This document shows positions 3,100-22,976 of a stretch of DNA of 43,775 nt, piece after piece. How positions within the stretch are numbered: the stretch's first letter is position 1; each line of letters starts with the position of its first letter. This DNA is from Verrucomicrobiota bacterium (GTDB taxonomy: Bacteria; Verrucomicrobiota; Verrucomicrobiia; Verrucomicrobiales; DEV007). Both the position numbers and the translations under genes were made by a program. A model generated the notes under the pieces. That model was not told the DNA's origin, ran no database searches, and saw nothing but the letters and a program-made list of their open reading frames with translations. The stretch covers positions 1 through 43,775 of the forward strand of contig JAJRVS010000023.1 of NCBI GenBank assembly GCA_024277195.1. Direction: 5' to 3'.

Positions 3100-3203
3100 G
3101 ATGATAGCAGACAATCATGACAGATATATGGTAAAAGTCGATAGGGATGTTGCCAATCCGTTTTTCGAGGGGGGAGACGGTAATAGATAAGTGCCGCGGC
3201 CCT

Positions 3204-3370
3204 AAGCTGCTGATAGCTACGTGTTTCGCCTTATTAGGGCTGGAAGAGTTGGGTTTTTTACCCAGCGCTTCGCACTGGGCTGTATCATTGAGCACCGTTG
3301 GTGCAAAAGAGATGAAAGCAAACTGCCCTGTAAGGACAAAATGTGATAGCCCGGTGCGAAGTCGCTGGGG
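3204..3370 (+). repeat. Hairpin-rich dispersed repeat, copy A (partial)
   Basis: About 167 bases that closely match 22518-22682. Shared blocks include CCCAGCGCTTCGCACTGGG, a GCACC-GTT-GGTGC hairpin and an AAGGACAAAATGTGATAGCCC stretch. The inner inverted-repeat arms are present, but the right arm carries one extra T and the outer left arm is degraded compared with copy B. It sits in the 300-base gap between plsY and the sco gene, which both read leftwards. The remainder of the gap (3100-3203, 3371-3397) shows nothing else. Short ORFs over it are by-products of the repeat. Confidence 0.8.
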
Positions 3371-21831: not shown

Positions 21832-22221
21832 CTATCGAACAGTGCGGACAGGATAGCTTTCAAATTGATCATCGACGGTTGCGATTTCCCATCCTTCTAC
21901 GAGAGCGGTGGAGATAAGTAATCGATCAAACGGATCTCGGTGGATGCTTGGCAGTTTGCCTAACATGAAAATGGCTTCGTCGCTGATAGGGTGAAAGGCC
22001 AGCTTAGAATTTTTGATTAAATCTGGTAAACATTGAGCAGGTGGGCTGGGCAAGTGAAGTTTACCTATTTGGTGTTTTATTTGAATCTCCAGGACCGAAA
22101 TTTGACTTAAGTGCCAGCGCGCGTCTTGAGACTGTAGCAGGCTGGATAAATTTGGAGAGAGTTTTGATGGTTCAAACTGCATCCACAAAAAAATGTGAGT
22201 GTCTAGCAGGATGTTTCTCAT
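21832..22221 (-). CDS. PIN-domain toxin (VapC-like)
   Basis: 129 aa. PIN ribonuclease signatures are present: LLDTHIFLWM at the N-terminus with the first aspartate, a central glutamate in SVLEIQIKHQIGKL, and the C-terminal acids in HRDPFDRLLISTAL and TVDDQF. These should form the Mg-binding site of a VapC-type RNase. The start ATG overlaps the stop of the antitoxin gene (ATGA, 22218-22221), so the pair is translationally coupled. The stop is TAG. Confidence 0.9.
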   Translation of the reverse strand: MRNILLDTHIFLWMQFEPSKLSPNLSSLLQSQDARWHLSQISVLEIQIKHQIGKLHLPSPPAQCLPDLIKNSKLAFHPISDEAIFMLGKLPSIHRDPFDRLLISTALVEGWEIATVDDQFESYPVRTVR

Positions 22222-22457
22222 GAACTGTAAAAGTCATTTTCAAATTCCTCCATAGGAGCATCGAAATCGGTAGGGATAGAGAGCTGACCTTTCAGTAAGC
22301 CGAGAACCGGACGTATGCCTTTGCTTTCATCGACACAGGGAGTGAGCATGGCGATGGGACGATTGCGCTCTGCTATGATGAAGTGTTCTCCTTCCGAGGC
22401 TTTGCGTGCGTAGCTGCCGAGATGAGCTTTTGCTTCACTAAGTTTCAGAGTTGTCAT
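22218..22457 (-). CDS. Phd/YefM-type antitoxin
   Basis: 79 aa from the ATG at 22457; eleven in-frame upstream codons are excluded because they run through the promoter. The N-terminus is a Phd/YefM fold: TTLKLSEAKAHLGSYARKA, then EHFIIAERNRPIAML. The acidic C-terminus (DFDAPMEEFENDFYSS) is the likely toxin-binding tail. It precedes and overlaps the PIN toxin gene. A palindrome covers its putative promoter, so it is probably autoregulated. Confidence 0.88.
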   Translation of the reverse strand: MTTLKLSEAKAHLGSYARKASEGEHFIIAERNRPIAMLTPCVDESKGIRPVLGLLKGQLSIPTDFDAPMEEFENDFYSS

Positions 22458-22462
22458 GAAAC

Positions 22463-22490
22463 AGATTAGTATTAGACTAGTAATTGTCAA
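22463..22490 (-). promoter_or_regulatory. Putative promoter and operator of the Phd/PIN module, predicted leaderless
   Basis: Reading leftwards: a perfect -35 TTGACA (22490-22485), a 16-base spacer and TAATCT (22468-22463; three of six matches). The expected transcription start falls on the ATG at 22457, which would make a leaderless mRNA. An imperfect 20-base palindrome (22465-22484, 14 of 20 symmetric, ends ATTA/TAAT) fills the spacer and -10, as expected for an autorepressor site. Confidence 0.4.
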
Positions 22491-22517
22491 GTATGCTGGG
22501 TGTAAGACAAAATAGTT

Positions 22518-22725
22518 AAGCTGCTGACCTCTATGCGTTTCGCCCTTGCAGGGCTGGGAGAATTGGTTTTTTACCCAGCGCTTCGCACTGGGCTATATCA
22601 TTGAGCACCGTTGGTGCAAAAGAGATGAAAGCGAATTGTCCTGTAAGGACAAAATGTGATAGCCCAGTGCGAAGCGCTGGGGTTAAATCGGTTTTATTAC
22701 CAGCCCTAAAAGGGCAAAATGATGT
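22518..22725 (+). repeat. Hairpin-rich dispersed repeat, copy B (complete)
   Basis: The element has nested inverted repeats. Outer arms lie at 22538-22557 and 22700-22719 (17 of 20 paired). Inner arms lie at 22573-22596 and 22659-22683, nearly perfect, built on CCCAGCGCTTCGCACTGGG. Inside are two small perfect hairpins, GCACC-GTT-GGTGC (22605-22617) and GTCCT-GTA-AGGAC (22638-22650). Each arm can also fold on itself. Copy A is at 3204-3370. It carries no protein. It lies between the antitoxin gene and a signal-peptidase remnant; the following bases to 22976 show nothing else. Confidence 0.85.
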
Positions 22726-22976
22726 TGATGGGTGATAAGGTAGCTTTCAACAACCAATGGGTAACTTTTTTGTCCTGCACTCAAGGATGCCTTCTGATGT
22801 GCTTTGAACTGGTCACGAAATGATTCGCTTATTTCTCCTTGGTGTTGTTGTTAATCAACGGCGTCGAAGCTCTCCTTGCTGTCGAGCATAAATTCTGAGC
22901 ACTGCCTCTCTGTGGTTCGGTGTTGCCTAATGTTATTAAATCGGGGGTTAACAGATATTGTAATCGCCGCTTTAAA

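What the first reader, a model, noticed from the sequence alone, without database searches (positions are those of the whole stretch)
22518..22725. Multi-branched hairpin repeat in two copies 19 kb apart
Nested outer and inner arms enclose two perfect small hairpins, and each arm also self-folds. The copies keep long identical blocks though they code for nothing. The build fits a REP/BIME-like element moved by a Y1 (RAYT) transposase, or a structured RNA. Copy B sits in the decayed accessory patch.
Basis: seen in the sequence. Interest (0 to 1): 0.6.

Follow-up and report, generated by a model that had tools for sequence, protein, structure and literature searches.

The report
Promoter-seeking MITE with REP hairpin core
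The hairpin repeat is the core of a 285-base parasitic DNA element, present in about 50 places in an uncultured Verrucomicrobiota genome, that is moved by the enzyme of an ISKra4-type jumping gene, tends to land a fixed distance upstream of promoters, and carries inside it a pair of hairpin repeats of a second, independent kind.

Summary
The structure is real, but it is the interior of a larger unit. The full element is window 22498-22782 (285 bp) with 19-21-bp terminal inverted repeats (TIRs) and a 9-bp target duplication (AAGTATGCT/AAGGATGCC, 7/9). The genome holds about 50 copies or remnants; at least 22 have both TIRs. A sister species (G055) has a diverged subfamily with exact 9-bp duplications, and one of its insertions is an empty site in a third species. 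The mobiliser is almost certainly an ISKra4-family (Mutator-type DDE) insertion sequence: a partial copy here carries the same 28-bp end (27/28), and an intact 1,856-bp IS in a related genus carries the same TIRs. A -35-like TTG lies exactly 27 bp outward from 21 of 80 element ends (background about 2), so insertions concentrate at a fixed distance upstream of promoters. This specificity class is published for ISKra4-group transposases, at a different distance. The hairpin interior is a head-to-head pair of REP units. The same REPs occur without TIRs, including beside Y1-transposase genes, and show compensatory changes.

The parts
22498..22782 (+). full-length element (MITE), 285 bp
   Evidence: boundaries from alignment of genomic copies; TIR hits at both ends
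22498..22525 (+). left terminal inverted repeat GGGTGTAAGACAAAATAGTTAAGCTGCT
   Evidence: 27/28 to the end of the ISKra4-family IS fragment at L089:2077-2104; 19-nt core pairs with the right end at 84%
22762..22782 (-). right terminal inverted repeat (GAGTGCAGGACAAAAAAGTTA read inward)
   Evidence: nearly identical to both ends of the intact IS L124
22489..22497 (.). left target-site duplication AAGTATGCT
   Evidence: 7/9 to the right flank; population test
22783..22791 (.). right target-site duplication AAGGATGCC
22538..22618 (+). REP unit 1: hairpin A (22542-22554), hairpin B (22574-22592), hairpin C (22605-22617)
22636..22719 (-). REP unit 2, head-to-head with unit 1: hairpin C' (22636-22652), B' (22663-22681), A' (22703-22715)
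3203..3370 (+). truncated second copy in the window (element positions about 21-186), no TIRs
22463..22490 (-). putative promoter (TTGACA, 16-nt spacer, TAATCT) reading away from the left end towards the Phd-like antitoxin gene; 7 bp from the element end
   Evidence: flank printed; hexamers read by eye, not found at the thresholds

Best explanation
[quoted passage not shown] The ISKra4 transposase recognises the GGGTGYARGACAAAAWAGTTA ends, excises or copies the 285-bp unit and inserts it with a 9-bp target duplication, preferentially with one end 27 bp before the -35 box of a sigma70-type promoter and with either end facing the promoter. TIRs, duplications, parent IS and promoter spacing are shown by sequence; transposition itself is inferred. 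The interior hairpins are cargo: a head-to-head pair of REP units (a BIME) of a family that also exists free of TIRs in this genome and in relatives that lack the MITE. How the BIME came to lie between ISKra4 ends (capture, or REP insertion into a MITE) is inferred and not resolved. Any effect of the hairpin block on the adjacent promoters is a hypothesis.
For: Copy number and ends. 9-bp duplications: 147 of 225 matching bases over 25 copies, against a re-paired mean of 61 (maximum 95 in 20,000); exact 9/9 duplications in several G055 copies. Empty site: the flanks of a G055 insertion (L110) are contiguous in G056 at 78% through the junction. Parent IS: ISKra4 transposase C-terminus next to a near-identical TIR, rest of the gene on C45; intact 1,856-bp IS in G015 with TIRs matching 20 and 21 of 21 positions, an exact 10-bp duplication, a DUF6788 ORF and a 441-aa transposase above the NCBIfam ISKra4 cut-off. 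Promoter spacing: TTG at position 28 in 21 of 80 ends, next best position 6, shifted controls at most 12 in 3,000; TA of a -10 at 51-52. REP core: 127-135 model hits in the genome, TIR-less doublets, REPs in MITE-less relatives, covariation. Family literature: IRs of 18-39 bp, 8-9-bp DRs, insertion upstream of sigma-A promoters, both orientations for ISKra4 members with nearly symmetric IRs (PMC3942029).
Against: No complete ISKra4 element is assembled in this genome: the two pieces lie on different contig ends and the C45 piece lacks a recognised left TIR. None was found in G055, which is 73% complete. Several older copies have poor duplications (L012, L003, L099). The window copy itself does not show the 27-bp spacing: its best promoter starts 7 bp from the left end. 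Published -35 spacing for this specificity class is 15-17 bp, not 27.
Confidence: 0.93

Rival explanations
1. A REP/BIME element dispersed as such by a Y1 (RAYT/IS200-like) transposase, with the apparent TIRs incidental.
For: The interior is a REP doublet; the genome has 28 Y1_Tnp matches, one intact 152-aa gene flanked by related REPs and a broken one with REPs on both sides.
Against: The copies share TIRs and 9-bp duplications outside the REPs. HUH Y1 enzymes are known not to make target duplications (established knowledge). The same TIRs bound an ISKra4 IS. The TAG that precedes hairpin A in 17 of 36 free REPs is absent from the MITE-embedded units listed. The Y1 gene is IS200-type and below the RAYT model cut-off.
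Confidence: 0.04
2. A structured regulatory RNA or small-RNA gene family.
For: Strong fold (z -11) and compensatory changes in the hairpins.
Against: No Rfam match. The element inserts at unrelated loci with target duplications; most compensatory changes are in free REPs (28 cells in 36 units) rather than MITE copies (11 cells in 108 units). DNA hairpins of mobile elements also keep pairing.
Confidence: 0.02
3. The REP core was domesticated: MITE copies kept upstream of promoters act as regulatory insulators or attenuators for the host (compatible with the MITE origin; an added function).
For: Fixed promoter spacing at about 40% of copies; strong hairpins.
Against: The spacing is explained by transposase targeting alone; copies decay, lose ends and are species-specific; no conserved orthologous insertion was found.
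Confidence: 0.08

Closest known systems
ISKra4 group of prokaryotic Mutator-like (p-MULT 4) insertion sequences
   Same: TIR length, 8-9-bp direct repeats, insertion upstream of sigma-A/70 promoters in both orientations (PMC3942029); shared TIR with an intact NCBIfam ISKra4 element
   Different: No coding capacity; -35 spacing of 27 bp from the element end, against the reported 15-17 bp
Bacterial MITEs such as Correia/NEMIS, RUP and MITEAba12
   Same: 70-300 bp, TIRs, target duplications, moved in trans by an IS transposase, foldable
   Different: Another IS family; the interior is a REP doublet rather than IS remnant or unique sequence
REP / BIME / REPIN sequences with RAYT or other Y1 transposases
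   Same: Short palindromes in head-to-head pairs, many copies, free-standing relatives beside Y1 genes, known in the PVC superphylum (PMC3733652)
   Different: Here enclosed in DDE-type TIRs and spread with duplications; no GTAG/TAG foot in the embedded units; three hairpins per unit

Membership tests
MITE | short, non-coding, terminal inverted repeats at both ends | tested here: met
   285 bp, TIRs 84% complementary, 61 TIR sites in the genome against 3 for the reversed pattern
MITE | target-site duplications | tested here: met
   9 bp
MITE | ends shared with an autonomous IS | tested here: met
MITE | empty site in a relative | tested here: met
   L110 site empty in G056; not available for the window copy
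ISKra4-group element | ISKra4 transposase in the element or in the parent IS | tested here: met
   parent IS L124 above cut-off, 247.6 bits; own-genome pieces partial, 163.9 and 102 bits, below cut-off
ISKra4-group element | insertion at a fixed distance upstream of sigma70-type promoters | tested here: met
   position-28 TTG peak; distance differs from the published one
REP/BIME (core only) | palindromic unit in many copies, also in inverted pairs, independent of the element | tested here: met
REP/BIME (core only) | compensatory changes in stems | tested here: met
   39 cells against 4.0 +/- 1.8 shuffled
REP of the GTAG class | conserved GTAG-type foot beside the palindrome | tested here: not met
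   TAG in 17 of 36 free units, in none of the MITE units listed
RAYT-mobilised REPIN | cognate REP-associated tyrosine transposase | tested here: inconclusive
   REP-flanked Y1 gene matches IS200 (60 bits, cut-off 55) and scores 19 against an 80-bit RAYT cut-off
Rfam structured RNA | match to a described family | tested here: not met
   only two tRNAs in the window

The most novel reading that the evidence does not exclude
A two-system composite: a promoter-seeking DDE transposase system acts as a delivery vehicle that parks REP doublets (substrates of a separate Y1/HUH system) at a fixed helical distance upstream of host promoters, so that the hairpin block influences those promoters and the REPs can still be processed by the Y1 enzyme.
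Probability: 0.12. Interest if true: 0.75.

Novelty: new variant of a known kind. Interest (0 to 1): 0.5.

Why it matters
The element joins two kinds of bacterial repeat normally treated apart, MITEs and REP/BIMEs, and shows REPs being amplified by a DDE transposase instead of a Y1 enzyme. It also shows a MITE with its parent family's promoter-upstream targeting, at a new spacing of 27 bp, about one helical turn beyond the published 15-17 bp. That gives about 20 natural insertions with which to test how such transposases find promoters and what a hairpin block does to them.

Tried and rejected
An exact-pattern scan of GTDB contigs found no close copies. Rfam gave nothing but tRNAs. The empty site for the window copy could not be shown, because G056 lacks the entire TA/SPase block and G055 has no match to the flank. 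The C45 IS copy has no recognised left TIR, so the own-genome IS could not be closed. G095 and G059 ISKra4 elements have only weakly similar ends. Searches of open papers for an ISKra4 MITE or for REPs inside a MITE found no precedent; most subscription papers are not held. An internal intrinsic terminator is not supported: one site found against 0.7 expected.

Full report
OBSERVATION. The nested arms and small hairpins are present at the stated place and fold far better than dinucleotide shuffles (z -8.4 as DNA, -11.1 as RNA). The 3.2-kb copy is real but is truncated at both ends. A search of the window's own genome (5.49 Mb, 422 contigs) gave 114 matching pieces that resolve to about 40 substantial copies at 78-94% identity. 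A search with the end sequence found 61 sites against 3 for the reversed control. With remnants, about 50 places carry it.

TRUE EXTENT. The unit is window 22498-22782. Its ends are imperfect inverted repeats, 84% over 19 nt. At least 22 copies here have both ends at 17/21 or better (my count). The nine bases on either side match each other: 147 of 225 positions over 25 copies, where re-paired flanks average 61 and never exceed 95 in 20,000 trials. The alignment of a few flanks is one base off in that test, which makes it conservative. The window copy has AAGTATGCT/AAGGATGCC. A sister species, G055, has a diverged subfamily (74-87% identity) with exact 9/9 duplications such as GGGACGCAA and CCAGGTGTC. 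One of these insertions (L110) is an uninterrupted stretch in G056, 78% identical through the junction, and G056 has no detected copy of the element. The element was found in 2 of 75 genomes of the family, both in this genus.

MOBILISER. One TIR site (C260:16276) is followed not by the repeat but by the 3' end of a transposase gene that runs off the contig. It matches NCBIfam ISKra4. The rest of the gene is on C45 with a 141-bp identical overlap at the protein level (47 residues). Its outermost 28 bp are shared with the MITE left end (27/28). In G015, another genus of the family, an intact 1,856-bp IS is bounded by GGGTGCAGGACAAAAAAGTT(G/A) at both ends. It has the exact 10-bp duplication ATAGCGTCAG, a DUF6788 ORF and a 441-aa transposase with 247.6 bits to ISKra4 (cut-off 205). 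That establishes the parent family. An active parent in this genome is inferred, because only pieces are assembled.

TARGETING. Guerillot and colleagues (PMC3942029) report that elements of this superfamily have 18-39-bp IRs and 8-9-bp direct repeats. They also report that ISKra4-group members insert upstream of sigma-A promoters, on both sides when the IRs are nearly symmetric; the -35 spacing they give for the specificity class is 15-17 bp. I tested this on 80 distinct ends. TTG begins at position 28 outward in 21 of them, no other position exceeds 6, and independent circular shifts reach at most 12 in 3,000 trials. In those 21, C precedes the TTG in 12, and T and A are the commonest bases at positions 51 and 52, where a -10 box would lie after a 17-nt spacer. 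Both left and right ends face promoters. The spacing, 27 bp from the element end, is about one helical turn beyond the published one. In the G015 IS, which has a 10-bp duplication, a TTG begins at 29, and in a G095 element a TTGACT begins at 28 (my reading). The window copy departs from the rule: a TTGACA/TAATCT promoter for the Phd-like antitoxin begins 7 bp from its left end.

THE HAIRPIN CORE. Each half of the core has hairpin A (GCCCTnnnAGGGC), hairpin B (CCCAGnGCnnnGCnCTGGG followed by CTATnTCATT) and hairpin C. A covariance model of A plus B finds 135 units in the genome. Of these, 36 units at about 20 loci that I read have no recognisable TIR (best 12-16 of 21, with L087 and L062). They occur singly, head-to-head and tail-to-tail, like REPs and BIMEs. 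Two lie beside an intact 152-aa Y1 transposase gene on C301, and three surround a broken one on C72. Relatives without the MITE also have them: G060 21, G066 10, G067 17, G079 25. Stems covary: 39 cells with changes on both sides against 4.0 +/- 1.8 in shuffles; counted separately, 28 in the 36 free units and 11 in the 108 embedded ones. Shuffles do not remove shared ancestry, so this supports pairing but is not a probability. The embedded units lack the TAG that precedes hairpin A in 17 of 36 free units.

SYNTHESIS. The evidence fits a MITE of the ISKra4 group whose interior is a BIME. The DDE system spreads the unit; the REPs are cargo. Shown: ends, duplications, parent family, empty site, spacing, independent REPs. 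Inferred: transposition in trans, origin of the composite, and any effect on neighbouring genes. The organism is an uncultured Verrucomicrobiota bacterium, judged from a window protein whose closest named relatives are MAGs of that phylum at 81-82% identity. No earlier description of an ISKra4 MITE or of a REP doublet inside a MITE turned up in the open library, but that library is partial.

Noticed in passing
window 21832-22490 (-): PIN-domain toxin with Phd/YefM-like antitoxin; the element ends about 40 bp upstream of the likely antitoxin start and 7 bp from a TTGACA. The block 21.76-23.60 kb (TA pair, element, signal peptidase) is missing from sister species G056.
   Followed up: partly
L082 (C343:10377-10519), L083, L127: Three copies share the same internal deletion joining CTGTCCTG of hairpin C' to the last bases of the right end; L082 has a perfect 9-bp duplication (GGCACTGAT), so the short form may itself be mobile or the deletion recurs at the GTCCTG microhomology.
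   Followed up: partly
L106, L108, L110, L118, L086 (right arm); L112, L114, L116 (left arm): The short loop of hairpin A is replaced by a roughly 31-nt module GAGCCGGAGCGnAGCGnAGACAGCCGrAGGCAAC in either arm; related sequences also occur in G056, which has no detected MITE.
   Followed up: partly
G000, many contigs: 28 matches to Y1_Tnp, most in 250-418-aa open frames matching only the N-terminal half of the family: an unusual set of long Y1 proteins.
   Followed up: no
L092 (C111:8486-8682): A 197-bp deletion derivative with both TIRs and an exact 9-bp duplication GACCCTTTT in which the two B hairpins have collapsed into one palindrome.
   Followed up: partly
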